Notes under the pieces: model-generated
Database searches by the model: none
The model's input: the letters and a program-made list of their open reading frames with translations, nothing else
Told to the model about the DNA's origin: nothing
Assembly (NCBI RefSeq): GCF_014699035.1
Contig: NZ_JACXAA010000009.1
Location: 1 to 64,000, forward strand
From: Spirosoma validum
GTDB taxonomy: Bacteria > Bacteroidota > Bacteroidia > Cytophagales > Spirosomataceae
Length of the DNA stretch: 64,000 nt
Reading direction: 5' to 3'
In this document: positions 21,695-44,942 of the stretch, piece after piece
How positions within the stretch are numbered: the first letter of the stretch is position 1
Layout: the number at the start of each line of letters is the position of its first letter
Translations under genes and position numbers: made by a program

Positions 21695-22945
21695 ATGAAC
21701 AAAGCAATATCGGTTGATCAATTAGCTATACACGGTGGCGACCCGACGGTTAAACGAACCTTTCCCTGGCCGATTTTTGACGATCAGGACGTACAGGCTG
21801 TCGCCGACGTAGTGCGGAGCGGCCAGTGGGGAAATCCCGATTGTGGGGATGCGGTTGCGACTTTTGAGCAACAGTTTGCCGACTATTGCGGTAGCAAATA
21901 CGCCGTTAGCTGCGTCAATGGTTCAGTTTCACTACGTTTAGCGTTGATTGCCTGTGGAGTACGTCCGGGAGATGAAGTGATTGTACCACCGTATACATTC
22001 ATTGCTACGGCCTCGGTCGTGCTGGAAGTGAATTGCGTCCCCGTCTTTGTGGATATTGATCCGGATACGTATAACATCGACCCTCAGAAAATTGAAGCGG
22101 CCATTACGGAACGAACCCGCGCTATCATTCCGGTTCATTTTGCCGGATTATCTTGTGACATGAACGCGATTTTAGCCATTGCCCAAAAACATAATATGCG
22201 CGTCATTGAAGATGCGGCTCACGCACATGGTGCTGAGTATAAAGGCAAAAAGCTGGGTTCCATTGGCGATGCGGGAAGTTTCAGTTTTCAATCGTCCAAA
22301 AACCTGACGAGTGGCGAAGGTGGAATTGTGGTTACCAACAATGAATCTCTTTATCAGATGATGAATTCGCTACGGAACGTGGGCCGATTGCCGGATGGCC
22401 AATGGTACGACCATTTCAATCCCGGCTGTAATTACCGGGTTACGCAATTGCAAGCCGTCTTACTCTCCGAACAACTGAAACGACTCGACGAGCAAACGCG
22501 GATACGTAACGAAAACGGTCTTTACCTCGATCAGTTGCTTGCTGATATAGAAGGCGTTACGTCGTTAAGTAGGGGAGACGTAGCGCTACGTCATTGTTAT
22601 CACCTTTATATTGTCAAGTACGATAAAACCAAATTTGGGTATATTCCGAAGAAAGAATTCGTGTCTATGCTGGCAGCGGAAGGCGTTCCGTGTTCGGCGG
22701 GTTATCCGCATCCGCTTTATAAGCAACCCCTTTTTCAGCAAAAAAACTGGCAATGTTACGCTATTCCCGATTCTGTAGCTTACACGCAAGTAAACTGCCC
22801 TGAAGCCGAACGCGCCTGTGCCGACGAAGCTGTCTGGATTTTTCAGCAAGCCATGCTCGGCACACGTAATGACATGGAATCGTTTGCCGAAGCGATCCGC
22901 AAGATTAGGAGAGCAATGTTGAATGTTGTGGAGTCGGGTTCTTAA
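21695..22945 (+). CDS. DegT/DnrJ/EryC1/StrS-type aminotransferase
   Basis: A 416-residue PLP enzyme of the sugar aminotransferase fold. The entry motif GGDPTVKRTFPWPIFDDQD, the cofactor region FSFQSSKNLTSGEGG with catalytic Lys202, and the aspartate of IEDAAHAHGAEYKGKKLG are intact. These enzymes transfer an amino group from glutamate to a keto-sugar, making amino sugars for surface polysaccharides or antibiotics; the acceptor here is unknown. No dehydrogenase or glycosyltransferase lies beside it. The last six codons and the stop lie inside the palindromic element 22928-22996, so its original C-terminus was probably altered. Confidence 0.92.
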   Translation: MNKAISVDQLAIHGGDPTVKRTFPWPIFDDQDVQAVADVVRSGQWGNPDCGDAVATFEQQFADYCGSKYAVSCVNGSVSLRLALIACGVRPGDEVIVPPYTFIATASVVLEVNCVPVFVDIDPDTYNIDPQKIEAAITERTRAIIPVHFAGLSCDMNAILAIAQKHNMRVIEDAAHAHGAEYKGKKLGSIGDAGSFSFQSSKNLTSGEGGIVVTNNESLYQMMNSLRNVGRLPDGQWYDHFNPGCNYRVTQLQAVLLSEQLKRLDEQTRIRNENGLYLDQLLADIEGVTSLSRGDVALRHCYHLYIVKYDKTKFGYIPKKEFVSMLAAEGVPCSAGYPHPLYKQPLFQQKNWQCYAIPDSVAYTQVNCPEAERACADEAVWIFQQAMLGTRNDMESFAEAIRKIRRAMLNVVESGS

Positions 22946-22996
22946 ACCCGACTTTTCAGGTTCGCAAATACGTCGGGTTTAAGAACCCGACCTCAC
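22928..22996. repeat. Double-hairpin repeat element, GTG...CAC ends
   Basis: Two 20-base palindromes, GTCGGGTTCTTAAACCCGAC (22933-22952) and its inverted copy GTCGGGTTTAAGAACCCGAC (22972-22991), flank a 19-base loop; they can each fold or pair with each other. The element covers the whole space between the convergent aminotransferase and XylR-like genes and likely terminates both. Confidence 0.85.
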
Positions 22997-23001
22997 GACG
23001 A

Positions 23002-24165
23002 TCATTTCCCCGCCAAGTACCGGTGTCGATATTCCAGAGGAGTGCACCCCTTGATCTGCTTGAACTGGCGGGCGATATTTTTAGTATCGCTGAGACCCAG
23101 ATCCATCGCGATTTCAAAAACAGTCAGATCCGTTTCCAGTAATTTTTTCGAGAATTTTTCCATCCGCAGGTTCTGGATGTATTTGTAGATCGGGTAACCA
23201 ATGACCTGTTGAAACCGCATTTCCAGTGATCGTCTCGATAAGGGAACCTGCCTGACAACCTCATCGACCTGAAGATTCTTGTCGATGTTCTGGTGAATGT
23301 ATTTCAACGAGGAGGCAATGTATTCGTCGTGCGTGGCATAGATATCGGTCGACTGGCGGGTGATGACCTGCATTGGCTCGACGATTATGTCATAGAACGT
23401 ATCGATGTCCTTACGAATCAGATGATCTAGTAATTGAGCCGCATCGTAGCCTCCTTTTTCGGCGTCCTGCATGATACTGGACAGCGGTGGGTCCGACAGT
23501 TCGCAGAGCATTTCGTCGTTATCGACGCCCAACACAGCCACTTCCTCCGGAATGCGAATGCCCGAATGCCGACAGGCCTCCGTGATATGCTGGCCCATCC
23601 GATCGTCGCAGGTCAGAATGGCAATGGGTTTGGGCAACGACGACAGCCACTTGCTCAGCGAACTGGGTTTGTAATACCACAGATCGCTCGAACTGTATTC
23701 TTCATGTTCAAAATAATGCACGGTATAGCCCGATCGTGAAACGCGCTCGTCAAATCCTTCGGCTCGCTCCCGTGACCAGACGATGTGTTTAAAGCCATAA
23801 AATGCGAATTGCCGAAACCCTTTTTTTAGAAAGTAATCGGCCGCCATCGCCCCGGTTGCTACGTGGGCACCCGTAATGTTCGGAATCTCCGTGAACCGTT
23901 CTTTAAAGTCCTGTGCAATGACCGGAATCCCCGCCCGAACGATTTTCTCGACACTACTATCGTTATACAACTGCCCGATAATCCCATCGGCTTCCCAATC
24001 GCGGGCCCAGTTCAAAATACCATCAACACCCAGCGTTTCGCGGTGAAAAAGCGGCATCTGGCAAAACACCCAGGGGCCGTGCTCGCGGGCATATTTAGTG
24101 ATGCCTTTCAACAGACTCCGGCTGTAGTCTTCCGCAAAGTCGATAAGCAGGATGATTTTGTGCAT
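23002..24165 (-). CDS. XylR-like regulator (LacI-type sensor + AraC HTH)
   Basis: A 387-residue regulator. Residues 1-270 form a periplasmic-binding-like sugar sensor (HKIILLIDFAEDYSRSLLKGI, CDDRMGQHITEACRHSGIRIPEEVAVLGVDND, quoted in pieces: VAVLGVDNDE, CDDRMGQHI), and the C-terminal 100 hold a double helix-turn-helix AraC domain (SRRSLEMRFQ, DLGLSDTKNIARQFKQIKG). E. coli XylR has this layout. It is the last gene of a leftward group, 30 bases downstream of the sugar transporter, so it likely controls the aminosugar genes in response to a sugar. Confidence 0.9.
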   Translation of the reverse strand: MHKIILLIDFAEDYSRSLLKGITKYAREHGPWVFCQMPLFHRETLGVDGILNWARDWEADGIIGQLYNDSSVEKIVRAGIPVIAQDFKERFTEIPNITGAHVATGAMAADYFLKKGFRQFAFYGFKHIVWSRERAEGFDERVSRSGYTVHYFEHEEYSSSDLWYYKPSSLSKWLSSLPKPIAILTCDDRMGQHITEACRHSGIRIPEEVAVLGVDNDEMLCELSDPPLSSIMQDAEKGGYDAAQLLDHLIRKDIDTFYDIIVEPMQVITRQSTDIYATHDEYIASSLKYIHQNIDKNLQVDEVVRQVPLSRRSLEMRFQQVIGYPIYKYIQNLRMEKFSKKLLETDLTVFEIAMDLGLSDTKNIARQFKQIKGCTPLEYRHRYLAGK

Positions 24166-24195
24166 AGATCTGCCGGTCCGCCGGTGCGGTTCTAG

Positions 24196-25452
24196 TTACA
24201 AGACAGGCTGGGCTTTTGTGCTCTTCCGCTTAATCGTTGCATTATTGACCAATGGTTTTGCCCAGAGACCGATACTGAAAATATAGCCTAACGTAATGAG
24301 CATGACCAGCATTGCCAGACGTAGTCCGACGAGTTCAGCGATGCCGCCAATGACAAGCGGCACCAACGCACCACCGACAATGCCCGTACACAAAATACCG
24401 GAAAAGGTGCCATGATGCTGCGGTACTGAATTGAGCCCCAGCGAAAAAATAATCGACCACATCACCGACGCAAAGAAACCCGTTCCCGGTAGCGCATACA
24501 GCGCCCATGCTTTCGGCCCGAACAGACCCAGCAGCAGACAACTAATGGCTCCGATAGTAAACAGCATCAACACCCGGCGACTATCGGCGATTTTCAGGAG
24601 TACTAATCCGAGTACGCACCCGATGGTCATCAATCCCCAGAAATAAGCCACTACGGTCGCGCCGGTCGTAGCTGGATCAACGCCGTGGTATAGTTGCAGA
24701 AATTTAGACATCCAGTTTGCAATTCCCTGCTCCGTACCGACATACGCGAAAATTCCGGCGAAGAAGAGCAAAACAGTTTTGTTCCGTAGTAAGTCCGTAA
24801 ACGCACTGCCAACTTCTATCTTTTCCTCTTCTTTGAAGGTAACAACCGGGAATCTGATTACGGCAACGACAACGATCATCAGGAGTGTTGTCAAGGCAAA
24901 GACCCAGTACAGAGAAACCCATTCAAAATGGAGCGGTACCACCTGGTTGAGCAGATCAATTAGAAAAGACGTATCGTTTGTGTGGACAGTCTGAACAAAG
25001 TGGCTGTACAATAGCGGGCTAAAAAAGGAAGCTGCCCCCGAAAACAGCTGAGCCAGTACCGAATTGAACGCAAAATGTTCTTCACCACCCGCCACTCGTA
25101 ACAATGGATTGATGGCTACCTGCAACATGGCCATGCCTACGCCAATTGAAAATAAGGATACGAGTGCGACAGAAAACGTGGGCAGTAAAGCGAAGAGTAG
25201 CGAACCCAGAAAGGCCAGCACGAAGGCGCTGATGAGCACCAGTTTTTCCCGGTATTTTTCGACCAGAAGCCCCGAGGGTATGGAAGCGCTGTAGGCCACA
25301 AAAAAAGCAAATGGGAGAAAGCCCGCCAGTCCAATACTTAACCTGAAACTGTCGACCAGATCGGGAATGATTGGCCCCAGAATGTTGGTCAAGAACGAAA
25401 TGACGAAGAAAATGAGCATGATAAGCCCGACAATCAGTACATTACGTTTCAT
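24196..25452 (-). CDS. FucP-like sugar:proton symporter (MFS)
   Basis: A 418-residue protein with 12 predicted helices. The N-terminal pattern FFVISFLTNILGPIIPDLVDSFRLSIGLAGFLPFAFF (quoted by its pieces FFVISFLTNI and FLPFAFFVAYS) is that of the fucose/glucose/galactose/GlcNAc (FGHS) family; NagP of chitin-using bacteria belongs here. A 13-bp perfect inverted repeat lies 24 bases before its ATG. Position between a ROK kinase and a XylR-like regulator supports uptake of an aminosugar, by inference. Confidence 0.88.
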   Translation of the reverse strand: MKRNVLIVGLIMLIFFVISFLTNILGPIIPDLVDSFRLSIGLAGFLPFAFFVAYSASIPSGLLVEKYREKLVLISAFVLAFLGSLLFALLPTFSVALVSLFSIGVGMAMLQVAINPLLRVAGGEEHFAFNSVLAQLFSGAASFFSPLLYSHFVQTVHTNDTSFLIDLLNQVVPLHFEWVSLYWVFALTTLLMIVVVAVIRFPVVTFKEEEKIEVGSAFTDLLRNKTVLLFFAGIFAYVGTEQGIANWMSKFLQLYHGVDPATTGATVVAYFWGLMTIGCVLGLVLLKIADSRRVLMLFTIGAISCLLLGLFGPKAWALYALPGTGFFASVMWSIIFSLGLNSVPQHHGTFSGILCTGIVGGALVPLVIGGIAELVGLRLAMLVMLITLGYIFSIGLWAKPLVNNATIKRKSTKAQPVL

Positions 25453-25475
25453 AGATGGTTTGTTTTATTGTCCAT

Positions 25476-25504
25476 CTTTGACAAAGTTCTAAACTTTGTC
25501 AAAG
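25476..25504 (-). promoter_or_regulatory. Perfect inverted repeat ahead of the sugar transporter gene
   Basis: CTTTGACAAAGTT (25476-25488), a CTA loop, then the exact complement to 25504. It begins 24 bases upstream of the ATG, too close for an upstream terminator role alone. It could be an operator for the XylR-like protein, a leader hairpin, or a second terminator. Confidence 0.5.
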
Positions 25505-25541
25505 GTCTGAAATCCCATTGCTTTCTTGGTATGATAATAGC

Positions 25542-25581
25542 GGCCGACCGTATGGTTCCGGTGGGAGTCATACGGTCGGCC
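25542..25581 (-). terminator. Terminator hairpin after ROK kinase
   Basis: GGCCGACCGTATG (25542-25554) and its exact complement (25569-25581) form a 13-bp stem with a 14-base loop, 70 bases past the ROK stop codon. An A/T extension follows after a bulge. Confidence 0.7.
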
Positions 25582-25651
25582 TATTGTATCTGCTTGTACA
25601 ATCAAAAGAACTTGCTTAATGACGTTCTGTACCGCGTTACCGACCTTAAAC

Positions 25652-26488
25652 TTACACCAACTGCCGTACCAGCGCAGCCGCACCCAGCAACGCAATGTTC
25701 TCGTTTTGTGATTGGAAAATCTTCAAGCGACGTAACGTAACGGGATAGGCAAAATCAGCCATACTTTCCAGCATCGAAGCTTTGAAAAACGGATAGGCTT
25801 TGGCAATGGACCCACCCAGCACAATCACCTCGGGATCATACGTGTATAGTACAGCTTTAACCGCATTGCCAAAATGTTTACCAAATTCAGACCAGAGAGC
25901 CAGCGCCTGCTTACCCCCCAAACGAGCTGCCTGGTGCGTATCCAGAGCGGTCGTTCCATGAATAGCTTCGAAAAAATGCGTGGAGGCATAGGATTCAATG
26001 TTCTTGTCGAGGTAAGGCAATAAGCCAATTTCCCCGGCTCCGCAATTGCTGCCTACGTATAGTTGATTGTCGATAATGACGCCGGAACCAAGGCCCGTGC
26101 CGATAGCCATGCCAACGACTGAGCTGTAGCCTTTCGCCATGCCAAACCGGTGTTCGCCGAGAGCAAAACAATTAACATCGTTATTGATAAAAACGGGCAG
26201 GTTAAATTCATTTTCCAGAATATCCCGCAAGGCAACTTCCTCCCAGGACGAAATATTCGCTACGTTATAAACAATGCCCCCTTCGATATCGACCACCGAC
26301 GGTACGCCGATACCAATGCCACTAACGGCGTAATTGGTTAGGGGTTTGATTAACGCAATCAGTTGCGATAACGTAGCGGGAAGTGATTCTTTTTGTTGTA
26401 AGGCTCGGTTGATCTGATGGGTAATGATGTCATGCTCCACCAGGCCAACCCGCACATTTGTACCTCCTAAATCAACCCCGATTGTCAT
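25652..26488 (-). CDS. ROK-family kinase, probable N-acetylglucosamine kinase
   Basis: A 278-residue ROK kinase. MTIGVDLGGTNVRVGLVEHD and GMAIGTGLGSGVIID are the two phosphate loops; NCGAGEIG follows, but the canonical Cys3-His zinc cluster of NagK is absent. It is separated from the transporter by a terminator, and the hexosaminidase lies upstream. By location it would phosphorylate the aminosugar released by the hexosaminidase. A second ROK kinase lies at 8519-9424 with little resemblance outside the motifs. Confidence 0.87.
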   Translation of the reverse strand: MTIGVDLGGTNVRVGLVEHDIITHQINRALQQKESLPATLSQLIALIKPLTNYAVSGIGIGVPSVVDIEGGIVYNVANISSWEEVALRDILENEFNLPVFINNDVNCFALGEHRFGMAKGYSSVVGMAIGTGLGSGVIIDNQLYVGSNCGAGEIGLLPYLDKNIESYASTHFFEAIHGTTALDTHQAARLGGKQALALWSEFGKHFGNAVKAVLYTYDPEVIVLGGSIAKAYPFFKASMLESMADFAYPVTLRRLKIFQSQNENIALLGAAALVRQLV

Positions 26489-26533
26489 GGTAAAAGCCGT
26501 TTGTATGAATAGTTTCTACTACATCGAACATCG

Positions 26534-27097
26534 TTATACTCTTTCTTTTTCATTGTAACTAAAGTCATTTGGTTTCAAATTCAGCTCCCGAATTTCCTTT
26601 ACCCACTCTAATTTTAAGTAGGGTAATGTTGCCTGAATGGAATCATAGCGTCTGAAGTGCTTCTTCCCGGTTGCAAATAGCTTAGCGACCATTTCACTGT
26701 CAATCTTATCTTCTTCTCTGGGATAGAAAATATCAGACAACATAACATTCCACATACCATAATCCGATAATAGCGCCAATGACGCTGGGCACTCAAATTC
26801 TATTGTCTGTATGCCTTCTTCCAGGTCCCTATCGCTCAGTAAACATCTGGCATCGACTAACGTTGGTACCTGTTCATATTTAGTACACGAGTGCCAGGCC
26901 CATATAGGTGAATATTGATTACAATCTATAGTATTGTTCGCCATTTGTTTTACCATCCATCGGTAAGCTCGGATGAAATAACCTGTTTCTAAATACCTGT
27001 CCCAATTTGCCTGAAGTATTCCTTTGCTTTTTAGCTCATGTATTGATTGGACAGACTGAAATGTCCAAAGCCTGTATGTCTTTTCCGGCTTTACCAT
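26534..27097 (-). CDS. DUF3841-family protein
   Basis: A 187-residue protein; ATG 27095-27097 is preferred to the upstream GTG 27119-27121 because family members begin close to the YRLWTFQSVQSIHELKSKG motif. Trp/Tyr-rich signatures YRWMVKQMANN and PIWAWHSC identify DUF3841, a family of cytoplasmic proteins whose function is unknown. It sits inside the aminosugar locus, but nothing in the sequence links it to sugars. Confidence 0.75.
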   Translation of the reverse strand: MVKPEKTYRLWTFQSVQSIHELKSKGILQANWDRYLETGYFIRAYRWMVKQMANNTIDCNQYSPIWAWHSCTKYEQVPTLVDARCLLSDRDLEEGIQTIEFECPASLALLSDYGMWNVMLSDIFYPREEDKIDSEMVAKLFATGKKHFRRYDSIQATLPYLKLEWVKEIRELNLKPNDFSYNEKERV

Positions 27098-27198
27098 TGT
27101 TAGCGATACGTCTCGATTCACAACTGATTGTCTTTTTTTAATGTGTTATAGACTTAGTCGCAAAAGCATTGGAAGTGGCGAACGCTCATCTTAAATCA

Positions 27199-29941: not shown

Positions 29942-31039
29942 ATGACGATTTCACCCAACCGACTTATTTCGTTGGATGCGCTACGTGGATTCACTATCGC
30001 AGCGATGATCGTGGCTAATTTTCCTGGTAGCGAGAAGTTTGTCTATTTTACGTTACGTCATAGCCAGTGGAATGCGCTATCTTTTACGGATTTGATCGCG
30101 CCGATTTTCCTCTTCGTCGTTGGCGTTTCCATCGCCCTGGCTTATACCAAATACGTAACGCAGCACCGACCGAAAGGCGGATTGTACCGGAAGATTGTGA
30201 TTCGGTCACTGAAAATTTTTGCTGTGGGCATGTTCCTGAATCTGATGCCTGATTTCGATATGACAACGATTCGCTGGACGGGCACGCTGCACCGTATCGC
30301 TATCGTTTTTCTGGTTTGTAGCGTCCTGTTTCTCAATACAACCTGGAGGCAACAGGTCTGGATTGGGCTCGTTACGTTGATCGCCTACTGGCTGGCTATG
30401 ACGCTGATCCCAACACCGGACGAAGGAAAAGTTATACTGGAACCCGGTCGGAATCTGGCGGCCTGGCTCGATCGGAAATACCTTCCCGGACGGATGTGGC
30501 AGGGAACCTGGGACCCTGAGGGAATTCTCAGTACGTTCCCCTCCGTCGTAACGGGCATGACGGGCATGCTGGCTGGCCGGTGGCTGCTCAGTTCCGCCAG
30601 TTCGCTCGAAAAAATTGCCTGGTTGATGACAATTGGATTGTTTTCGGCGATAGCGGGCTATTTCTGGGGACTGACCTTTCCGGTCAATGAAAATCTCTGG
30701 ACTAGTTCGTTCGTGCTCGTTACGTCGGGTTTTGCGTCGATGCTGCTGGGGGCGCTTTATTTTCTGGTCGACATCGAGGGGCATACCGACGGCATTAAAC
30801 CCGGCATTATTTTCGGCGCCAATGCCATTACGGTCTACGTACTGGCCGATCTTTTCGCGCTCTTCTTCTATCGGATGAAAGTTGGGAGTCTTACGCTAAA
30901 TGAATTGGTCGTGCATAGTCTTAGCTCCTTTGGTCTACAACCCGAACTGGCCAGTTTATTGTACGCGCTCTTCTTCGTTTGTATCAATTTTATTCCGGCT
31001 TACCTTCTGTATCGGAACAAGGTATTCGTTAAGCTGTAG
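29942..31039 (+). CDS. NagX / HGSNAT-like membrane acyltransferase (DUF1624/DUF5009)
   Basis: A 365-residue integral membrane protein with about ten helices. The start MTISPNRLISLDALRGFTIA, then FTDLIAPIFLFVVGVSIALA, matches the family containing heparan-alpha-glucosaminide N-acetyltransferase and bacterial NagX; the conserved His/Asp/Arg pattern (RLxSLDALRG, LHRIAIV) is present. NagX genes cluster with GlcNAc use genes. It is divergent from the hexosaminidase by 160 bases and may share its control region. The reaction is not proven for bacterial members. Confidence 0.88.
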   Translation: MTISPNRLISLDALRGFTIAAMIVANFPGSEKFVYFTLRHSQWNALSFTDLIAPIFLFVVGVSIALAYTKYVTQHRPKGGLYRKIVIRSLKIFAVGMFLNLMPDFDMTTIRWTGTLHRIAIVFLVCSVLFLNTTWRQQVWIGLVTLIAYWLAMTLIPTPDEGKVILEPGRNLAAWLDRKYLPGRMWQGTWDPEGILSTFPSVVTGMTGMLAGRWLLSSASSLEKIAWLMTIGLFSAIAGYFWGLTFPVNENLWTSSFVLVTSGFASMLLGALYFLVDIEGHTDGIKPGIIFGANAITVYVLADLFALFFYRMKVGSLTLNELVVHSLSSFGLQPELASLLYALFFVCINFIPAYLLYRNKVFVKL

Positions 31040-31046: not shown

Positions 31047-31152
31047 GTGGTGTCGGGTTTGAGAACCCGACACGGCGAGATTCCCCTAACCCGCGGACCG
31101 TATAAAAACGAACTTTTATCTAACTGGGTCGGGTTTGAGAATCCGATGCCAC
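31047..31152. repeat. Dispersed hairpin repeat element
   Basis: Begins GTGGTGTCGGGTTTGAGAAC (its palindrome TGTCGGGTTTGAGAACCCGACA at 31051-31072, 22 bases, is near perfect) and ends GTCGGGTTTGAGAATCCGATGCCAC-like at 31128-31152 with one change. The ends are GTGG and CCAC. It starts 8 bases past the stop of the NagX-like gene. Confidence 0.8.
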
Positions 31153-31287: not shown

Positions 31288-32553
31288 ATGGAAAAACGGA
31301 GAGTTGGAATTATAGTAGCGGTGGTGTTGAGCCTGGGTATCCTGGTTTATTTTGGTTGGCAGTACGTTACCGATAAAGCGGCTCGACAAAAGCAGGAACA
31401 GGCAGATAAGGCAGCTCGACAGGCTGAACTTGCGGCCCGAAAAGCGGCCGAAAAAGAGGCACGTTTAGCGCTGGCAAAAGCGATTCAGACGTTACACCGG
31501 GCTAATCAATACGCTGACTCTGTTGGTGTTGATACCAGTCGCTACGTAGTACGAGCCAGTGCTAGCAAAGGTCAGGTTGATACGTTACTGACGCGGGTAC
31601 TGACGGAAATTCGTTACGGTAAAAAACCATCAGATCTCGCGTTTAGTGGTCTGAAAGACAAACTTGATTCAGCCTGGATACACAACCCGGAAGCGGCTAT
31701 TGAACCCGAATCGCTAGCTAAATTGTCGGCATTTGGTCCGTATACCAAGCTGGTTGGTTACTACAATCAGATTCGGAAAGAGTCTGGTAAAAATTCAGCT
31801 ACCAGTGATTCGCTGCGTCTTATTCGGCATACGCTTAATTTTTACCGATACATCAATCGCTTTAATCCCGAGCAGTTTGTGCTGGTCAATATTCCGGCGG
31901 GTGAACTCAACGTGTTTGATAAAACGGGTCAACGTCTGTTGCCCATGCAGGTGATTGCGGGTAAGCCCGATCGGCAAACTCCCCTCATGACGACTTACAT
32001 TCAAAACATTGTGATGTATCCGCAGTGGAACGTACCGCGAAACATTGCGCTGGAAGAAATGCTGCCCCGCATGAAACGAAATCTGGCGTACCTGACCAGC
32101 CAGAATCTTGAATTGATTGATGATAAGGGCCACGAGGTCAATCCCGAAAAGGTGAATTGGAAAACGATTTCCGAGACTAATTTTCCGTATCGTGTTCGGC
32201 AGGCGTCGGGTTGCGACAACTCGCTGGGGTTATTGAAATTTAATCTGGCGAATCCGTTGGCAATTTATTTGCACGATACTAACAGCCGCGATCTATTCAC
32301 CAAAACTACCGACCGCTGGCGGAGTCATGGGTGCGTGCGGGTGCAAAAGCCTGTTGAGCTGGCGAATCTGGTACTGGGCGAAGAAGCGTTCGACGACAAG
32401 TTTATGAAAGAATGTCTGTTGCATCAGAAACCCCAGACGCTCCCCATTCCGAAACGGTTTCCTGTATTTATTACCTATAACGTTGCTGACATTGATGAAA
32501 GTGGAAAACTACGTTTCTACAAAGACGTTTATGCTACTCCTACCGGTAATTAG
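31288..32553 (+). CDS. L,D-transpeptidase (YkuD family)
   Basis: A 421-residue periplasmic protein. A signal anchor (residues 7-27) is followed by an Ala/Lys/Glu-rich coiled coil (30-75), a middle alpha-helical region, and the catalytic YkuD domain (about 200-385). The motif HDTNSRDLF...SHGCVRVQ contains catalytic His347 and Cys349, both intact. Such enzymes make 3-3 crosslinks in peptidoglycan or attach proteins to it. The overall architecture resembles E. coli LdtD-like proteins but shorter. It is flanked by repeat elements on both sides. Confidence 0.92.
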   Translation: MEKRRVGIIVAVVLSLGILVYFGWQYVTDKAARQKQEQADKAARQAELAARKAAEKEARLALAKAIQTLHRANQYADSVGVDTSRYVVRASASKGQVDTLLTRVLTEIRYGKKPSDLAFSGLKDKLDSAWIHNPEAAIEPESLAKLSAFGPYTKLVGYYNQIRKESGKNSATSDSLRLIRHTLNFYRYINRFNPEQFVLVNIPAGELNVFDKTGQRLLPMQVIAGKPDRQTPLMTTYIQNIVMYPQWNVPRNIALEEMLPRMKRNLAYLTSQNLELIDDKGHEVNPEKVNWKTISETNFPYRVRQASGCDNSLGLLKFNLANPLAIYLHDTNSRDLFTKTTDRWRSHGCVRVQKPVELANLVLGEEAFDDKFMKECLLHQKPQTLPIPKRFPVFITYNVADIDESGKLRFYKDVYATPTGN

Positions 32554-32587: not shown

Positions 32588-32699
32588 GTGCTGTCGGGTT
32601 CTTAAACCCGACTCAGTAAGGTTTCTCAAAACCTTGCGGTTGAGGACGAACTCGGGTTTGAGAACCCTCGCTGGGTCAGTTTTAAGAAACTGACCCCAC
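32588..32699. repeat. Dispersed multi-hairpin repeat element
   Basis: Contains four consecutive inverted repeats: GTCGGGTTCTTAAACCCGAC at 32593-32612, AAGGTTTCTCAAAACCTT near 32617-32635, CGGGTTTGAGAACCC near 32653, and GGTCAGTTTTAAGAAACTGACC-like near 32674-32695. The ends are GTG and CAC. It lies 34 bases past the transpeptidase stop. Confidence 0.8.
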
Positions 32700-36478: not shown

Positions 36479-36517
36479 GTAGCAAGCAAATGATTTTCTG
36501 TTAACCAATTCAAAACT

Positions 36518-37735: not shown

Positions 37736-37759
37736 TTTCATCGTTAAGATTTACTGCAA

Positions 37760-38311: not shown

Positions 38312-38326
38312 CGATTCTAAAACAAA

Positions 38327-38356: not shown

Positions 38357-38381
38357 GAAAAACTTTCATAATAGGTTGGTT

Positions 38382-38415
38382 TATATTCCCCACCTGTTTT
38401 ACGGGTGGGGATATA
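38382..38415 (+). promoter_or_regulatory. GC-rich hairpin in the leader of AhpD-like copy 2
   Basis: CCCCACC (38388-38394) pairs with GGTGGGG (38404-38410); flanking TATAT arms extend the stem after one bulged T. It ends 24 bases before ATG 38439, so it would sit in the mRNA leader or at the promoter. No known riboswitch resembles it. Confidence 0.4.
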
Positions 38416-38438
38416 TTGAACACGAAACAAATCAAACA

Positions 38439-38996
38439 ATGGCACATATCCAATTACCCGAAGGATTACCCGGTATCCGGGGACCAATGGCTTTTAGCCC
38501 GGAAACGACGAAGCCACTTAATCTGCTTGTCGATCAACTTCTTTGGTCGGCAGACAACACCCTGAGTCAGGGTGAACGCGAACTGATTGCGACCTATGTA
38601 TCGTCGGAAAACGATTGTCAGTATTGTCAGACAATTCATGGCGCGATTGCCAGCCAATGGCTTGGCGATACCGACTGGAGTCTTGTTCAACAAGTAAAAC
38701 AAAATCCGGAAACGGCACCGATTTCGGAGAAAATGAAGGCGCTACTGGCCATTGCCGGGAGCGTTCAGAAGGGCGGGAAGCACGTAACGCCAGAACAGAT
38801 TGAACGCGCCAAAAGTGTAGGTGCGACAGACAAAGAAATTCACGATACGGTTCTGATCGCTGCGGCTTTCTGTATGTTCAACCGCTACGTCGATGGGTTA
38901 GCTACGTGGATGCCGGACGATCCGTCATTTTTCCGGCAACGGGCTGTGCTCGTCTGCGAAAACGGGTATTCAGCTGCCAATCCAAAACCCGTTTGA
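38439..38996 (+). CDS. AhpD-like protein (copy 2)
   Basis: A 185-residue paralog. ATG 38439 gives MAHIQLPEGLPGIRG, matching the start of copy 1 (MPHIQLTEGVPGIRS) and copy 3, so the longer frame from 38172, overlapping copy 1, is a shadow. The redox site is CQYCQTIH. Copy 2 has its own leader hairpin and follows a terminator, so it is likely expressed on its own. It is closest to copy 1 in order and length. Confidence 0.85.
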   Translation: MAHIQLPEGLPGIRGPMAFSPETTKPLNLLVDQLLWSADNTLSQGERELIATYVSSENDCQYCQTIHGAIASQWLGDTDWSLVQQVKQNPETAPISEKMKALLAIAGSVQKGGKHVTPEQIERAKSVGATDKEIHDTVLIAAAFCMFNRYVDGLATWMPDDPSFFRQRAVLVCENGYSAANPKPV

Positions 38997-39126
38997 GAGC
39001 CGTAAGTTAATTGATCAGACAGTTAAACAAGACTACCAGGATGTCTGATGAATAGAGTTTTTTCTTCGAAATAATTACTCATCTAACTGGAAATATATAG
39101 CTGGTTCAGCACATTTAGAACGAATA

Positions 39127-39173
39127 TTTTGTTTAACTAATATAGCAGTATGGTTAAACAAAAGATTTTGTTT
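39127..39173 (+). promoter_or_regulatory. Inverted GTTAAACAAAA cluster, putative operator of the small HTH gene
   Basis: TTTTGTTTAAC (39127-39137) and its exact complement GTTAAACAAAA (39153-39163) face each other across 15 bases; AAACAAAA then overlaps a third half-site in the palindrome AAACAAAAGATTTTGTTT (39156-39173). A further GTTAAACAA stands at 39022. The cluster ends 48 bases before the HTH gene. Confidence 0.5.
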
Positions 39174-39220
39174 TAGGTAACCCTGATCTGTTAAGATTGA
39201 ATATTCAAACCAGTTGAGTC

Positions 39221-39406
39221 ATGCCGAAAGTAGTCGAAGGAACCCTGTTTTATACGATTCCAGAAGCCGCTCTGGAATTACACATTACCGTTGGGAAATT
39301 GAAAGGCTACTTAGATCAAAGTAGATTGGTTAGCGAACGGATTGGTAGATCGGAATTGATCCGGGAGCAGATTTTGAGAGCCTATCTGGCCAAACGGGAG
39401 CAGTAA
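39221..39406 (+). CDS. Small excisionase/MerR-like HTH protein
   Basis: A 61-residue protein made of one winged-helix-turn-helix-like unit: FYTIPEAALELHITVGKLKGYLDQSRLVSERIGRSELIREQIL, quoted by pieces IPEAALELHITVGKLKGYL and RIGRSELIREQI. This is the helix-turn-helix-17 excisionase pattern, binding DNA as a small regulator. No integrase, phage or plasmid gene is nearby, so an excision role is unlikely. Operator-like repeats precede it and a strong bidirectional terminator follows. It may regulate itself and neighbouring AhpD genes, as inference. Confidence 0.7.
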   Translation: MPKVVEGTLFYTIPEAALELHITVGKLKGYLDQSRLVSERIGRSELIREQILRAYLAKREQ

Positions 39407-39425
39407 GTGCGATGAATAAGGAAGT

Positions 39426-39480
39426 ACTAAAAAGCTCTGGTTATAGTCTTCACAACTGACTATAACCAGAGCTTTTTAGT
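39426..39480. terminator. 23-bp perfect bidirectional terminator
   Basis: ACTAAAAAGCTCTGGTTATA (start of a 23-base arm, 39426-39448) has its exact complement at 39458-39480, with a 9-base loop. A- and T-runs at the stem base make it work both ways, serving the HTH gene and the convergent AhpD-like copy 3. Confidence 0.9.
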
Positions 39481-39492
39481 TATAAAAGTCGA

Positions 39493-40059
39493 TCAGGCGT
39501 TGGCCTTCAAATGATCGTACCCTTGTTTGAGTCGGTTATATCCGTGGGTTGTGATGCGCTCGCCCAGATAGGTGTAGAACGCTGGATCGGTCGGCGTCAC
39601 GCTCGCCAGTCCATCAACGTATTTGTTGTACAGACAGAATAGAGCGGCAATTAGCACCGTATCATGAATCTCCCGATCCGTAGCGCCAGCAGATTTAGCC
39701 CGGTCAATGGCCTCCGGTGTTACGTCCCGTCCGCTTCTCTGCACCAGGGCTGCTACGTTCAGCAACGCTTTCATCTTGTCAGAGACGGGGGCAGTTTCGA
39801 AGTCCTGTTTGACGAGTTCGCAGGTTTCGGATTCACCTAACAAGATATTGGCTGCGGCTGTGTGCGCGGTCATACAGAACCGGCATTCGTTCCGATGTGA
39901 TACTAACGTAGCGATCAATTCGCGCTCACCCTCGGTTAGGGTCGATTCACCCCGGAGGAGAAGTTGAGTTAGCTCCCGAATGGGCTGCGCTGAATCCTGC
40001 CGGTATTCGAGCAGGCCGGTTATACCCGGTAAATGGGCTTCAAGTGGAATATGAGGCAT
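39493..40059 (-). CDS. AhpD-like protein (copy 3)
   Basis: A 188-residue paralog in reverse orientation: PHIPLEAHLPGITGLLEYRQDS opens it (quoted by PHIPLEAHLPGITG), the redox motif is CRFCMTAH, and HDTVLIAALFCLYNKYVDG the conserved end. Its gene lies head-on to the HTH gene. Together with copies 1 and 2 the family has been amplified locally, all with CxxC and His kept. Confidence 0.85.
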   Translation of the reverse strand: MPHIPLEAHLPGITGLLEYRQDSAQPIRELTQLLLRGESTLTEGERELIATLVSHRNECRFCMTAHTAAANILLGESETCELVKQDFETAPVSDKMKALLNVAALVQRSGRDVTPEAIDRAKSAGATDREIHDTVLIAALFCLYNKYVDGLASVTPTDPAFYTYLGERITTHGYNRLKQGYDHLKANA

Positions 40060-40119
40060 AGGAAAAGGAGTGTTGTATGCGGTCAGACTGGCGTACCAGT
40101 GGGTACTTGCGCTAATGGG

Positions 40120-40875
40120 CTAGAATCGCGGATTCCCACCCACACTACTTTGCAACGATGCTATCTCTGTTTGCTCCGCCAAATACGCTGACTTGGCTAA
40201 ATAATCCGTATTCGGCGAATACACGAACAGGCAGGAGCCGCCTTTCACCGCCTGGATGATGCCTTTTGAATCGGCATAAGGAACGGCTGGGCAACCCTGG
40301 CTACGGCCTAAGCGTCCCGTTTTGCGAATGAAATCTTCACAGACGTAATCCGCTCCGTGCAGCACAATATTTCGGTTATAAACATTGTCGTTGAAGCCTT
40401 TTTCCAGCCCTTTCAATTGCAACGACAGGCCGTGTTTGCCCATGTACGTGTTGAGCGTCTGGTAAAAACCAAGACTGCTCTGGAACGAGGATTGCTTATT
40501 GGAGAACCGTTCGGCAACCAGATCGCCGGAGTTCTGCCCGTGAGCAACATACGTATTGAAAAGTAGTTTTTTCTTGATCAGGTCAACCACATACATCCGT
40601 TTATGGGTAGAAGGCTGGCTAAGATCAACAATCGTTAGCGTAGACTTGTCCGGGCTCACTCGTTGCCAACCCCGTAGCGCATACTCAAAAACAGACTTCT
40701 GCAAGCCGGTCTGACTTAGCTGTAGCTGATCGTACACGTCGAGATAAGGAATGAACTTTTCGTGTTTGGGCGCCGGAACTGGCTTGACGACGGTAACGTT
40801 ACGGTTGGATTTGTATCCGGTACTGACGAAATAAATAAGGGCAACAGCAACCAGAAGCAAAAAAACATTCTTCAT
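40120..40875 (-). CDS. Murein L,D-transpeptidase-like protein (YkuD_2 family)
   Basis: A 251-residue protein with an N-terminal signal anchor (residues 1-22) and the YkuD_2 domain: HGADYVCEDFIRKTGRLGRSQGCPAVP, quoted by HGADYVCEDF and RSQGCPAVP, where the His and Cys are the expected catalytic pair. This family is distinct from the classic YkuD of 31288-32553 and is common in Bacteroidota; it probably acts on peptidoglycan in the periplasm. It reads away from the divergent EcsC gene 110 bases off. Confidence 0.88.
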   Translation of the reverse strand: MKNVFLLLVAVALIYFVSTGYKSNRNVTVVKPVPAPKHEKFIPYLDVYDQLQLSQTGLQKSVFEYALRGWQRVSPDKSTLTIVDLSQPSTHKRMYVVDLIKKKLLFNTYVAHGQNSGDLVAERFSNKQSSFQSSLGFYQTLNTYMGKHGLSLQLKGLEKGFNDNVYNRNIVLHGADYVCEDFIRKTGRLGRSQGCPAVPYADSKGIIQAVKGGSCLFVYSPNTDYLAKSAYLAEQTEIASLQSSVGGNPRF

Positions 40876-40984
40876 ACTTGGACAAGCAGGCGTTTGTGGA
40901 AGTTAATGAGGATGTATAGTAGCAAACAGCCGGTTCGGCGTTTTAATTCGGTGAAGATAGTATTTTTTCGCTAAATCATATCAT

Positions 40985-41725
40985 ATGACTCCCTACGAAC
41001 AAGCCGTAAAAACAGAACTTACCCGCTGGCAGCAGGCCATGCAAAAGCCGCCTTCCACCTTTGGGCGACTCTCTACGGCCGTGCAGCGTCGGATCAATCG
41101 AATCATTCCACAAAAAGTACATGCTGTTGTTACCGCTACGATCAAGCAAATGACCCGGGCCGTTCTATTCGGTGCTGAGTTTCTGTCCCGCCAGCCGGTG
41201 GAAGGCAAAACGCTCATTCAGCGCGATGCCGATGTGGCTCGCCGGATTGAGTTCTACAAAAAAACGAGCGCGGCCGAAGGGGGCGTAACGGGTGCCGGTG
41301 GGTTTCTGATGAGTCTGGCCGATTTTCCAATCCTGCTCGCGCTGAAGATGAAAATGCTGTTCGAGATTGCCAGTCTGTACGGTTTTCCGGTGAATGATTA
41401 TCGCGAACGGGTGTATATTCTCTATGTTTTTCAACTGGCCTTTTCGAGTCAGGAGCGTCGGCAGGAGGTATATCAATACGTAGCGAACTGGCCTGAGCAT
41501 AGTCGCCAGCTACCCGATGATATTCACAAGTTCGACTGGCTTACCTTTCAGCAGGAATACCGCGATTACATCGATCTGGCCAAAATGGCGCAACTGATTC
41601 CGGGCATTGGAGCCGTGGTTGGCGTTGTGGTCAATTATAGGCTCATCAATCAGCTCGGACGTACCGCTATGAATGCGTACCGAATGCGTTTGCTGGCGGA
41701 GGATAACGCGTTACGTATCGAATAG
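40985..41725 (+). CDS. EcsC family protein
   Basis: A 246-residue protein with the EcsC signature: GAEFLSRQP, AEGGVTGAGGFLMSLADFPILLALKMKMLFEIASLYGFP (quoted by GGVTGAGGFLMSLADFP), and two hydrophobic amphipathic segments. EcsC-like proteins are membrane-associated with poorly known role; the Bacillus namesake sits with an ABC transporter. No such transporter lies here. Standalone gene, divergent from YkuD_2. Confidence 0.88.
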   Translation: MTPYEQAVKTELTRWQQAMQKPPSTFGRLSTAVQRRINRIIPQKVHAVVTATIKQMTRAVLFGAEFLSRQPVEGKTLIQRDADVARRIEFYKKTSAAEGGVTGAGGFLMSLADFPILLALKMKMLFEIASLYGFPVNDYRERVYILYVFQLAFSSQERRQEVYQYVANWPEHSRQLPDDIHKFDWLTFQQEYRDYIDLAKMAQLIPGIGAVVGVVVNYRLINQLGRTAMNAYRMRLLAEDNALRIE

Positions 41726-41746
41726 GCGATTCGCCCGTTAATAAAC

Positions 41747-42202
41747 CTAGTTTTTAACTCGTTTATAGGTTTCGATAATGATGTGGTCAATGCCTAGTTT
41801 CTCCACTTTTTCGATACCTTTTTGAACTAACGTGTCCCCGGAGATTTTAATTATAAACTTGAATTTGTTGCCTTCCCAATTCTTGTCGCTAAAGTAATCC
41901 AGATGTTCCGTATAGGTACTGTCAGCTAAGGTGTATGTGCCACCGCCCGCCGTAAACGCGTTCGACGAATCTTTGGGCGTATTTACTTTATGATTTAAGA
42001 ATGCGAAATGCGTTGGGTTAATAATCTTGATCATTTTATGGGTCGGATCGAACGTAGAAAAGGTTGAATCCTTTTCTGTGGTTGTCGCCGAAACCAACTC
42101 CCAGGTGCCAATAATAGGCGTATCGGATTCGGCTTGTTTTGTTTTGCAGCTTGACAGGATGGAAACCATCGCTAGTAAAGTAAGTACACGGTTAAGCTTC
42201 AT
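41747..42202 (-). CDS. Lipocalin-like lipoprotein
   Basis: A 151-residue lipoprotein with lipobox SILSSCKTKQ (Cys near residue 19). The mature domain IIGTWELVSATTTEKDS, then FLNHKVNTPKDS and GGTYTLADSTYTEHLDYF, resembles lipocalin-like DUF4488-type domains of Bacteroidota that may bind small hydrophobic molecules. It converges with EcsC, 21 bases apart. Function not known. Confidence 0.75.
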   Translation of the reverse strand: MKLNRVLTLLAMVSILSSCKTKQAESDTPIIGTWELVSATTTEKDSTFSTFDPTHKMIKIINPTHFAFLNHKVNTPKDSSNAFTAGGGTYTLADSTYTEHLDYFSDKNWEGNKFKFIIKISGDTLVQKGIEKVEKLGIDHIIIETYKRVKN

Positions 42203-42282
42203 GGATCAAATGGTTTTACTCGGAAACTAAAGAAGTATGGCTTGGCAACCTACTTAAACGAACCAACGTAGCAAGCAATTGA

Positions 42283-42816
42283 TCAAACTACGGCAAGCAG
42301 ACTGCCGAATAGAATCGCTTCGATTACCCTTTGTACGAGCCCTCGAAATGGCAGGTCCGGTATAGATAGCAACAGAGCGCCTGCTAGTACACTGCCAGCC
42401 GCTACACTAAAAGGGTCATACCCGAACAGCGTGAACGTAGTGCTGAATTGACCCAGAAAATAAGCGCCACCAATGTACTCGACGGCCCCACCCAAATTGT
42501 GAATCTGCTGTCGACCACTTCCCGACAAAGGTGAGCCCGTGTCACAGGGAAAGAATGCAGCCACTACGTACCCAGTCCCAACACAAACGGCCAGGCCGGC
42601 TACAGCGTTCTCATCCGTTAATGCGGCTACTACCCATAACAGGACGCCCACGAATAGAAACAATCCATAGTTGACGGGGCGCGTTATAGGGCTGCCAATT
42701 TCACCCAGTTCGCTGATTGTTCGGTTTAAATGGTTATAGCCGGGCTTACGCCATCCAAAATAGATAATGCCTGTCAGCAATGCCAACGTACTAATGAGCG
42801 TGAGAACGTAGGTCAT
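42283..42816 (-). CDS. DUF998-like membrane protein
   Basis: A 177-residue protein with about six transmembrane helices. GYNHLNRTISELGEIGSP near residue 30 and FFPCDTGSPLSGSGRQQIHNLGG in the middle (quoted FFPCDTGSPLSG) match DUF998. It starts 8 bases after the FAD-monooxygenase stop, so it belongs to that operon and may assist its substrate's passage, as inference. Confidence 0.85.
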   Translation of the reverse strand: MTYVLTLISTLALLTGIIYFGWRKPGYNHLNRTISELGEIGSPITRPVNYGLFLFVGVLLWVVAALTDENAVAGLAVCVGTGYVVAAFFPCDTGSPLSGSGRQQIHNLGGAVEYIGGAYFLGQFSTTFTLFGYDPFSVAAGSVLAGALLLSIPDLPFRGLVQRVIEAILFGSLLAVV

Positions 42817-42824
42817 TTTTGCGG

Positions 42825-43964
42825 CTAACTGAACATAACAATCATATTGGAAAGGGCAGCTGGAGAATGCAGAGAAGCGGTTTGTTCTAACGTCATGGCT
42901 GCGGTGTCTGACGCTCTTGCACGCATCTGTTGTTCGTACTGAGCGATTGCTGTCTGGACATCCGGAAATTCGTCACTTGTAAGACATGTACTTAATTCCA
43001 GAGCATCCAGCATAGCCATATTGACGCCTTCACCCGCATACGGAGGCATCAGGTGCGCGGCATCACCCAGCATCGTTACATTCGGTAACGCATCCCAGGT
43101 TTGGTCCAGCGGCATACAATATTGCGGTCGGGGCACAAAGTTAGAGTCGGCGTTTTCAATTAATTCCAGCCAGGCAGAATCCCAGCCAGCAAATTCCTGT
43201 TTAAACCACGCCAGTACCTGAGGCTTGTCCGAAAAATTGATCCCGCTCGTACGAATCCAACCCTCATCGGTCTTACAGCCGGTGTAGAAAACCAAACTGC
43301 CATCGCCTTTCGAGCTGACAATTATCGTTTTTTCGTCGCCCATCGCGAATATCTTTCCGCCGTTTAACAGCCTGTGTATGTTGGGTGCCGTTATTTCTGA
43401 ATTATAGATGGTTCCTTCAACAATCGTAACGCCCGCATAAAAGGGCTTGATGGACGTAATGAACGGACGTATTTTGGAGTTAGCCCCATCGGCGGCAATG
43501 ACGATATCTGCAAAAGCAGACGTATCGTTTTGAAACTCAAGCTTCCAGCCGTTGTTAACCGGTACTAATGACGTCAAATAGCGGTTCCAGACAACCGTAT
43601 CGGGCTGTAATGATTCCAGCAAAATTCTCCGTAGCGGACCGCGATCAATTTCCGGACGGAATATCTCATCCGTTTCGTTTGCCTCGTCGTCCCATAAAAT
43701 AGTCATGTTTTTGTCAACGATACGTACCTTCTCCGCTCCCGGACGAAAGTTGGCGTTAAACGCAGCCATCAACCCTGCTTCCTGAAGCGCTTTCAAGCCT
43801 GATTCTTCGTGCAAATCCAACGTAGCACCCTGTACCCTGATATCTTTGTTCAAGTCTCGTTCATAGACGTTTACATCGGCACCGCTTTGTTGCAGCAGTC
43901 GGGCAAGCGTCAACCCGCCGGGACCTCCGCCCACTATAGCTATCTTTTTATGATCAATTACCAT
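42825..43964 (-). CDS. FAD-dependent monooxygenase (TetX-like)
   Basis: A 379-residue group A flavoprotein monooxygenase. GGGPGGLTLARLLQQSG is the FAD Rossmann loop near the N-terminus, and LGDAAHLMPPYAGEGVNMAMLDA the second FAD motif; the DG motif ADGANSKIRP is between. These enzymes hydroxylate aromatic or polycyclic compounds; TetX inactivates tetracyclines. Similarity to TetX is by motif layout only, so resistance is not shown. It lies 31 bases after the AraC gene and 8 before DUF998. Confidence 0.9.
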   Translation of the reverse strand: MVIDHKKIAIVGGGPGGLTLARLLQQSGADVNVYERDLNKDIRVQGATLDLHEESGLKALQEAGLMAAFNANFRPGAEKVRIVDKNMTILWDDEANETDEIFRPEIDRGPLRRILLESLQPDTVVWNRYLTSLVPVNNGWKLEFQNDTSAFADIVIAADGANSKIRPFITSIKPFYAGVTIVEGTIYNSEITAPNIHRLLNGGKIFAMGDEKTIIVSSKGDGSLVFYTGCKTDEGWIRTSGINFSDKPQVLAWFKQEFAGWDSAWLELIENADSNFVPRPQYCMPLDQTWDALPNVTMLGDAAHLMPPYAGEGVNMAMLDALELSTCLTSDEFPDVQTAIAQYEQQMRARASDTAAMTLEQTASLHSPAALSNMIVMFS

Positions 43965-43995
43965 GTCTAAAAATGTAGTTTAGTATGGCGCAAAA

Positions 43996-44754
43996 CTACT
44001 TTGTCGACAAGGTGGAAAATTGTATAAATCGGTCGTTTTCGTTGCGGGTTAGTTCTTTGGGCGTAACACCAGAATATTTTTTCACGTCTTTGATGAAATG
44101 GGCCTGGTCGGTAAAATTTTGATCCGGGAAAAGTTTTCCTTCCCGGATTTGGTCGAAAGAAGCTCTGTAGCGCAGAATACCACAGTACGTTTTCAGCGAA
44201 ACGCCAAACCAGTGCTGAAAATACCGATTGATCTGGCGGCTGCTCCAATGAACGCTATCCGAAAGTTCATGAACGGGAAGAGCGCCCTGCGACGAATAGA
44301 TCAATTCCATTAATTTTTGTTTTCGTTCATTAACCTTCCCCTTCAATAAACTCATCATTTTCGCCGACACTTTATCACAGAACGTACTAAAATCGGTCAG
44401 ATTGTCGGGGGTAATGTTCCAAAAGCCAGTCGGTAAATAGCTTACTTTATTCGCGAGTGGGGCAATGGTAAAATCAAGCAGGTATTCGAGAGCGAGTAAC
44501 TTGAAACTGATCGCGAAAATGACCGATTGAGGAGAAATAGCGCTTTGCGAAGGCTCGTTAGCCAACCCGGAAACCGTTACGTGGAAAGGTTCGATTGCTG
44601 AGCAGGAAAAGAAAATATCAAATCGGCCGTCGGGTAAAACGACTACGTCTTTTTCTTCATCCGTGTGATTCACAAGCATCCAGAAACTTTCTACAAAGTC
44701 AGAAAGTGCCGGGTCTGGTTGCGCGAGTTTGTACTCAATATCGGCTATAGCCAT
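43996..44754 (-). CDS. AraC family regulator (DUF6597-type N-domain)
   Basis: A 252-residue regulator with an N-terminal domain of the DUF6597 kind (KLAQPDPALSDFVESFWMLVN, quoted KLAQPDPALSDFVESFW) and an AraC double HTH: VHELSDSVHWSSRQINRYFQHWFGVSLKTYCGI (quoted WSSRQINRYFQHWFG). It is the first gene of a leftward operon, so it likely controls the monooxygenase and DUF998 genes. The effector is unknown. Confidence 0.9.
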   Translation of the reverse strand: MAIADIEYKLAQPDPALSDFVESFWMLVNHTDEEKDVVVLPDGRFDIFFSCSAIEPFHVTVSGLANEPSQSAISPQSVIFAISFKLLALEYLLDFTIAPLANKVSYLPTGFWNITPDNLTDFSTFCDKVSAKMMSLLKGKVNERKQKLMELIYSSQGALPVHELSDSVHWSSRQINRYFQHWFGVSLKTYCGILRYRASFDQIREGKLFPDQNFTDQAHFIKDVKKYSGVTPKELTRNENDRFIQFSTLSTK

Positions 44755-44834
44755 TTCTACATGGATGGATTAATCGAACCCAGAGCGGTCCGGAGGTTTA
44801 AAGGCATATTACACTTGCTGATCTAATCCATTCC

Positions 44835-44942
44835 GTGGAGTCAGGTTCTAAACCTGACTCGGTGAGGTTTCTCAAAACCGAACCACTGTGAATCGCTCGG
44901 TTTTGAGAAACCTCGCGGGGCAGGTGTAGAACCTGCCCTCAC
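44835..44942. repeat. Dispersed multi-hairpin repeat element (GTG...CAC)
   Basis: A 108-bp element: GTCAGGTTCTAAACCTGAC (44840-44858), then GAGGTTTCTCAAAACCG (44864-44880) with its exact complement at 44898-44914 (17-bp stem), and GGCAGGTGTAGAACCTGCC near the end. The outer ends GTGGAG and CCTCAC-like pair. It is 72 bases past the stop of the serine-hydrolase gene. Confidence 0.85.

What the first reader, a model, noticed from the sequence alone, without database searches (positions are those of the whole stretch)
22928..44942. Dispersed family of GTG...CAC multi-hairpin intergenic elements
Seen directly: five elements (1-30, 22928-22996, 31047-31152, 32588-32699, 44835-44942) share ends GTGG/CCAC-like and palindromic cores of the form GTCRGGTTY-nn-AACCYGAC, with lengths from 30 to 112 bp and one to four hairpins. 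Every copy lies just 3' of a gene (0 to 72 bases past the stop). Inference: a MITE-like or REP/BIME-like element, spread by a transposase in trans or used as a terminator or RNA stabiliser. Internal hairpins differ by covarying changes (GGG/CCC vs AGG/CCT), so structure rather than sequence may be under selection.
Basis: partly seen in the sequence, partly recalled or inferred. Interest (0 to 1): 0.75.

Follow-up and report, generated by a model that had tools for sequence, protein, structure and literature searches.

The report
Self-copying hairpin repeats beside genes
Short hairpin-forming DNA repeats scattered through this bacterial genus look like a known class of mobile repeats with its own transposase gene, but many copies sit at the tip of long perfect palindromes, and in the cases that could be checked one neighbouring gene's end had been copied backwards over the other side, probably by DNA polymerase using the hairpin as template.

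Summary
The five elements are real members of a genome-wide family: 74 hit clusters, about 72 loci, a lower bound. They are REP/REPIN-type repeats: GTGG-footed hairpins, single, as inverted pairs, or with four hairpins. One transposase gene of the RAYT type (REP-associated tyrosine transposase) and its 5 close orthologues among 36 genus genomes all have copies within 300 bp (6 of 6; 0 of 19 distant RAYT matches).

The unexpected part: 20 of the 72 loci, including the one at window position 1, are centres of longer perfect palindromes with 12-35 bp outer arms that differ at every locus. At three of four loci tested, orthologous proteins show one gene's last codons and stop copied, inverted, over the convergent neighbour's end. 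At one locus in a relative, an empty site shows a 10-bp inverted copy of the target flank. Orthologous palindromes differ symmetrically in both arms, and loops have flipped. These are known signatures of hairpin template switching; I found no paper describing it for REPs. Many genomes without the RAYT carry the repeats, so its role is unproven; a terminator role is untested. Known family, new variant.

The parts
1..50 (.). Single-hairpin core GTGGTGTCAGGTTCGAAAACCTGACACCAC (1-30) plus right palindrome arm (31-50); the left arm lies at the end of contig C38. Long-armed type
   Evidence: C38:386693 has a 20-bp perfect arm identical to window 31-50. ORF 71-1270 (-) ends 20 nt further
22928..22996 (.). 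Inverted pair (REPIN/BIME-like) of two GTCGGGTT..AACCCGAC hairpins; its first 18 nt encode the last codons and stop of ORF 21695-22945
31047..31152 (.). Inverted pair with a long (46-nt) middle: hairpins at 31047-31076 and 31123-31152; 7 nt after the stop of ORF 29942-31039
32588..32699 (.). Four-hairpin form (outer REP hairpins, inner GGTTTCTCAAAACC-type arms); foot degenerate (GTGC); 34 nt after the stop of ORF 31288-32553
44835..44942 (.). Four-hairpin form; 71 nt after the stop of ORF 45014-46216 on the - strand

Best explanation
The elements are REP/REPIN repeats of a RAYT (TnpAREP) system. Shown: the family, its GTGG-footed hairpins, its single / inverted-pair / four-hairpin forms, and a RAYT gene with copies beside it in 6 of 6 genomes. 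Inferred: the RAYT spread them. In addition, single copies act as nuclei for palindrome growth. The hairpin folds in single-stranded DNA, the 3' side of the stem primes on the strand that carries it (or the nascent strand switches to its own hairpin), and polymerase copies the 5' foot (giving the paired GTGG/CCAC ends) and then 12-35 nt of 5' flank. The result is a perfect palindrome whose outer arms are one gene's 3' end and whose other side has been overwritten. Repeats of this process rewrite both arms together and flip the loop. Shown: inverted copies of a neighbouring gene end at three loci, one inverted flank copy at an empty site, symmetric arm differences and loop flips between orthologues. 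Inferred: template switching as the cause, and the growth of the paired foot by the same process.
For: Family and RAYT: (NF047646, 96.5 bits, cut-off 80). Long arms: 21 of 74 clusters in the genome have perfect extensions of 12-35 bp; over 84 distinct single copies from several genomes 42 have extension score >=6 against 0.0009 of 6644 mismatched flank pairs, and 2 of those 42 have a mismatch. Present in independently assembled genomes, e.g. L154-L156, L152, L145, L140 and L333-L335, L346, L347. Copying: C38:329190, right gene ..SSQPGK* while none of 7 relatives ends GK*, and the left gene's own end is ..GK*; C6:117017, left gene ..YQKP* against YQ[KQ]* in 5 of 5 relatives, while the right gene ends KP* in 6 of 7 (KPE* in 1); C35:76918, right end LK* kept in 4 of 4, left end changed against 11 of 11. 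Empty site: L156 against L303/L304. Symmetric differences: L154/L137, L155/L273, L131/L305 with 2 paired and 0 unpaired substitutions in the outer 21 bp. Loop flips: L349/L327 and L131/L305. TnpAREP cleaves 5' or 3' of REPs leaving a 3'-OH that could prime replication (PMC8266576 passages).
Against: Elements are plentiful where no close RAYT exists. C7:82130 gave no clear copy direction. At the empty site only the outer 10 bp of the 29-bp arm come from the target; the inner 19 bp were found nowhere else in the DNA held. Outer arms are not random flank: G/T-rich, 17 of 32 with GTGG, although the outside flanks are skewed too. Most single copies have short or no arms (52 of 84 under 12 bp). L268/L297 was not a clean empty site. 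Selection on structure could add to arm symmetry. The relatives used for three gene-end tests are distant (about 52-87% protein identity).
Confidence: 0.65

Rival explanations
1. Insertion-coupled snap-back: a RAYT nicks or joins a REP hairpin at the target, and the 3'-OH of the hairpin primes copying of the flank during transposition itself, so every new insertion brings an inverted target copy.
For: The core type with loop TTCGAA/TTTTCGAA never occurs without long arms: 15 of 16 copies have arms >=16, the sixteenth is the copy cut by the contig end. Empty site with an inverted flank copy. TnpAREP cleavage leaves a 3'-OH.
Against: Arms are also rewritten long after insertion in G010/G028, which lack a close RAYT. 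Long perfect palindromes also grow on non-REP hairpins such as L345 (36 bp), L342, L107:4393.
Confidence: 0.15
2. Loop targeting: the repeat inserts into the loop of pre-existing palindromic terminators.
For: Other long perfect hairpins exist in the sampled DNA. Some arms look like nested old feet.
Against: Arms run flush into the foot with no loop remnant; orthologous sites of C38:329190 and the L156 empty site show no such palindrome; gene ends were copied.
Confidence: 0.08
3. Selection for bidirectional terminators between convergent genes builds and keeps perfect stems by compensatory change.
For: 13 of 18 long-armed clusters are convergent, against 7 of 52 other clusters (Fisher 7.5e-6) and 24 of 215 background gaps.
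Against: Block-wise symmetric differences, loop flips and protein ends carried along are not expected from selection alone. Convergent placement may only mean that such copying is tolerated there.
Confidence: 0.1
4. Assembly or sequencing artefact of palindromes.
For: Two pairs of contig ends fall in such palindromes.
Against: The same feature at orthologous sites and in separately assembled genomes, including single-contig ones such as G005 and G008.
Confidence: 0.02

Closest known systems
REP / BIME / REPIN repeats with RAYT (TnpAREP) genes
   Same: GT[AG]G foot plus hairpin, inverted pairs, extragenic and near gene 3' ends, a single RAYT gene flanked by copies (PMC3733652 abstract, passages and section 16; PMC6006769 passages and sections 13, 23, 25; PMC3116915 passages)
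   Different: Four-hairpin forms; many singles at the tip of long perfect palindromes with locus-specific arms; abundant in genomes that lack a close RAYT
'Double foot' REPs (5' GT[AG]G and 3' C[TC]AC), described for TnpAREP subclass 2.4
   Same: The 30-bp single element has exactly this form (PMC6006769 section 13)
   Different: That paper suggests central deletion of an inverted pair; here at least some paired ends look copied, and copying runs on into the flank. The RAYT beside these repeats resembles subclass 2.6 more than 2.4
Template-switch mutation at inverted repeats (quasipalindrome correction)
   Same: Reverse-complement copies, arm homogenisation and spacer inversion (PMC8794818 abstract and start of introduction; PMC8604942 abstract)
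   Different: Those papers concern RNA genes and yeast coding DNA; here the seed is a dispersed mobile-type repeat
Perfect coding palindromes of Nematomorpha mitochondria
   Same: Long perfect repeats, near absence of imperfect ones, template switching proposed (PMC6649704 discussion passages)
   Different: No conserved tip, no transposase, a different genome

Membership tests
REP/REPIN | Short (20-40 bp) palindrome in many extragenic copies | tested here: met
   74 clusters; 61 of 70 within 100 bp of an ORF 3' end, most outside ORFs; one copy overlaps a gene end (22928)
REP/REPIN | Terminal unpaired GTAG-like tetranucleotide (GTRG) | tested here: inconclusive
   GTGG is frequent at the foot (A1: columns 1-2 invariant, 3-4 at least 90%), but in single copies it is paired with CCAC at the other end
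REP/REPIN | Inverted pairs as a unit | tested here: met
   Pairs at e.g. window 22928, C34:181655, C35:457946, C37:340121
REP/REPIN | Cognate RAYT gene flanked by copies | tested here: met
   6 of 6 close orthologues with model hits within 300 bp, weak in the window's own genome (E 0.0047 and 0.078); 0 of 19 distant matches
REP/REPIN | Movement by the RAYT | not testable with these tools
   needs an assay; presence without a close RAYT is against a current need
TnpAREP subclass 2.6 | Motifs NH[LIV]H, WQ, YIH[QN]NP | tested here: inconclusive
   Protein of L003 read by eye: NHIH met; YMHNNP differs by one residue; no clear WQ (IWT). Motif table
MITE of a cut-and-paste transposon | Direct target-site duplication | tested here: not met
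   One clean empty site (L156 against L303/L304): no direct duplication, 3 nt lost, inverted copy instead
Intrinsic terminator | Hairpin followed by a T run, ends transcripts | not tested
   T/A runs seen beside lone hairpins L349, L327, L314, L321, L311 but no systematic scan; transcript ends not available
Template-switch product | Reverse-complement copy, arm homogenisation, spacer inversion | tested here: met
Rfam families | Match above the gathering score | tested here: not met
   0 matches in the window

The most novel reading that the evidence does not exclude
A REP hairpin is itself a mobile palindrome seed: its transposition, primed from the 3'-OH that a RAYT leaves at the hairpin, inserts a tip and writes an inverted copy of the target's flank, an insertion mode that yields inverted rather than direct target duplication; later tips replace earlier ones inside the same palindrome, so the element persists as a site whose sequence is continually rewritten.
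Probability: 0.15. Interest if true: 0.85.

Novelty: new variant of a known kind. Interest (0 to 1): 0.6.

Why it matters
It links two fields: REP/REPIN repeats, whose spread is unresolved, and template-switch mutation, which is usually inferred from isolated events. Here one genus offers dozens of natural events with a constant tip as marker and locus-specific arms as record, so rate, direction and length can be measured. It also shows a route by which neighbouring convergent genes change their last codons together, and a warning that paired changes in a stem need not mean selection for an RNA structure.

Tried and rejected
RAYT relatives in named genomes: only 3 distant loci, none with element hits. 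Rfam: nothing in the window. Central deletion as sole source of the single form: L125 against L287 holds a single element against two elements at a syntenic site, but the automatic alignment there is poor and I do not count it as proof. Clean empty site at L268/L297: rejected, about 120 nt of unalignable DNA. C7:82130: copy direction undecided. First thought that 15 of 20 long-armed copies were convergent (in my notebook) was a miscount; searches give 13 of 18 not at an edge. No structure prediction was run. Literature: searches; none of the titles, abstracts or passages I saw describes palindrome growth on REPs, but only open-licence papers are held and most were seen as listings.
Full report
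What was checked. The window is contig C39:1-64000 of an 8.22-Mb genome in 39 contigs. The core pattern occurs 62 times (both strands, up to 3 mismatches) against 1 for the backwards control. A 30-nt model R1, built from 20 units, gives 147 strand-matches; together 74 clusters. Two pairs of clusters lie at contig ends with the same arms, so about 72 loci. Only 150 of 6162 candidates were scored, so this is a lower bound.

Forms. Single hairpins (core about 28-30 bp, GTGGTGTCRGGTTnnnnAACCYGACACCAC), inverted pairs with a spacer, and a four-hairpin form whose inner arms also pair with each other. In the window: 1-50 is a single with its right arm, 22928 and 31047 are pairs, 32588 and 44835 are four-hairpin forms. 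22928 overlaps the end of ORF 21695-22945 by 18 nt.

Transposase. Of 4 Y1_Tnp matches in the genome, one (L003) scores above the cut-off of NCBIfam REP-associated tyrosine transposase (96.5 against 80 bits); a second (L004) scores 77.2 and is flanked by different palindromes. Among 36 genus genomes, 6 including this one have a close orthologue of L003 (67-80% identity in the other five). All 6 have model hits within 300 bp, although in the window's own genome they are weak (E 0.0047 and 0.078); none of 19 distant matches, nor 5 further loci, has any at E<=0.1. All 6 genomes are among the 18 of 36 with the strict single-hairpin pattern; 12 genomes without a close RAYT also have it, and G010, G028 and G007 have 92, 57 and 46 model strand-matches. 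At the RAYT site of G023, genomes G001 and G022 are syntenic on both sides, and G008 on one side, and have elements there but no close RAYT; loss is my inference.

Long arms. In this genome 21 of 74 clusters (20 loci) extend as perfect palindromes 12-35 bp beyond the core, with a different sequence at every locus; most others extend 0-6 bp. Over 84 distinct single copies from several genomes, 32 have arms of 12 bp or more. With mismatches allowed, 42 score 6 or more against a fraction of 0.0009 among 6644 mismatched flank pairs, and only 2 of the 42 contain a mismatch. The core with loop TTCGAA is always armed where both sides can be seen (15 of 15 in three genomes; the sixteenth is cut by the contig end at window position 1); the loops TTCTTAAA and TTCTTCAA reach at most 8 bp in 17 copies. 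Separately assembled genomes show the same, as do 5 of 20 further G010 loci.

Copying of flanks. At four long-armed loci the arms reach into coding ends and were compared with orthologues. C38:329190: the right gene ends SSQPGK*, in none of 7 relatives GK*, while the left gene's end is GK*: left copied to right. C6:117017: the left gene gained a proline before the stop against 5 of 5 relatives, and KP* is the right gene's end in 6 of 7: right to left. C35:76918: the right end LK* is shared by 4 of 4, the left end differs from 11 of 11: right to left, with distant relatives. C7:82130 is undecided. At L156 of G010, two relatives at 91-92% identity have an empty site; the filled site holds a 68-bp palindrome plus a 10-bp inverted copy of the left flank including the stop codon, and lacks 3 nt. 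The 10 bp match G007's flank exactly; G028's flank has two or three differences there.

Rewriting. Sister genomes G010 and G028 (about 91% identical) have palindromes at the same sites. L155/L273: outer arms of 16 bp identical on both sides, inner arms 13 against 4 nt, symmetric in each. L154/L137: a symmetric inner difference and a symmetric outermost pair, with one unpaired base in G028. L131/L305 (neighbouring palindrome): two paired and no unpaired substitutions in the outer 21 bp, but three mismatches in the G010 core. Loops are flipped in L349/L327 and L131/L305. Several sites hold an element in more than one species, with different forms or arms, for example L101/L169/L144 and L118/L134/L163.

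Context. 13 of 18 long-armed clusters not at an edge lie between convergent ORFs, against 7 of 52 other clusters (Fisher 7.5e-6) and 24 of 215 background gaps in the fetched stretches; the other clusters are mostly in tandem gaps (44 of 52). Overall 61 of 70 are within 100 bp of an ORF 3' end. The background comes from stretches chosen for holding elements; the window alone has 7 convergent of 48 gaps.

Reading. Reverse-complement copies, arm homogenisation and loop inversion are the published marks of template switching at inverted repeats (PMC8794818 and PMC8604942, abstracts). TnpAREP cleaves beside REPs and leaves a 3'-OH that, as its authors note, could prime replication (PMC8266576, passages); a nick there would also start snap-back copying. 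Since G010 and G028 lack a close RAYT yet show rewriting, and since non-REP hairpins carry long arms too (L345 36 bp, L107:4393 31 bp, L196 30 bp), I favour replication-based switching, with the RAYT responsible for dispersal at some time. Not explained: the G/T richness of 5' arms and the frequent extra GTGG (17 of 32, 1 with CCAC; 0 of 20,000 orientation flips as extreme; outside flanks are skewed too), and the source of the inner 19 bp at the L156 site.

Novelty. The family is a known kind. The palindrome growth with a conserved tip is, in the papers I saw, not described for REPs (searches; mostly listings, open-licence papers only).

Noticed in passing
L004:1370-1435 and 2080-2150 (G000 C11): A second RAYT-like gene (NF047646 77.2 bits, just under the cut-off 80) has a different palindrome family (CACGGACTTTAGTCCGT) on both sides; a related palindrome lies at L114:568-625.
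   Followed up: no
L345 (arm 36), L342 (arm 26), L107:4393-4461, L196:2367-2431, window 39426-39480: Long perfect hairpins without the REP core, several on terminator-like hairpins with T/A runs, so palindrome growth may not be limited to REPs.
   Followed up: partly
L084:465-534 and L103:4070-4117 (G000): Another palindromic repeat (CCCCTAAATCCCCTGAAGGGG / CCCCTTCAGGGGATTTAGGGG) with long arms.
   Followed up: no
L003:1926-1945, L065 upstream of 3001, L064 after 3117 (G000): A GACGGTCGGCCGCAGCCGT-like insert inside or next to element hairpins, perhaps a further small palindrome that uses them as target.
   Followed up: no
contig ends C38/C39 and C39/C14 of G000: Assembly breaks coincide with the long perfect palindromes; the contigs probably adjoin there.
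   Followed up: no
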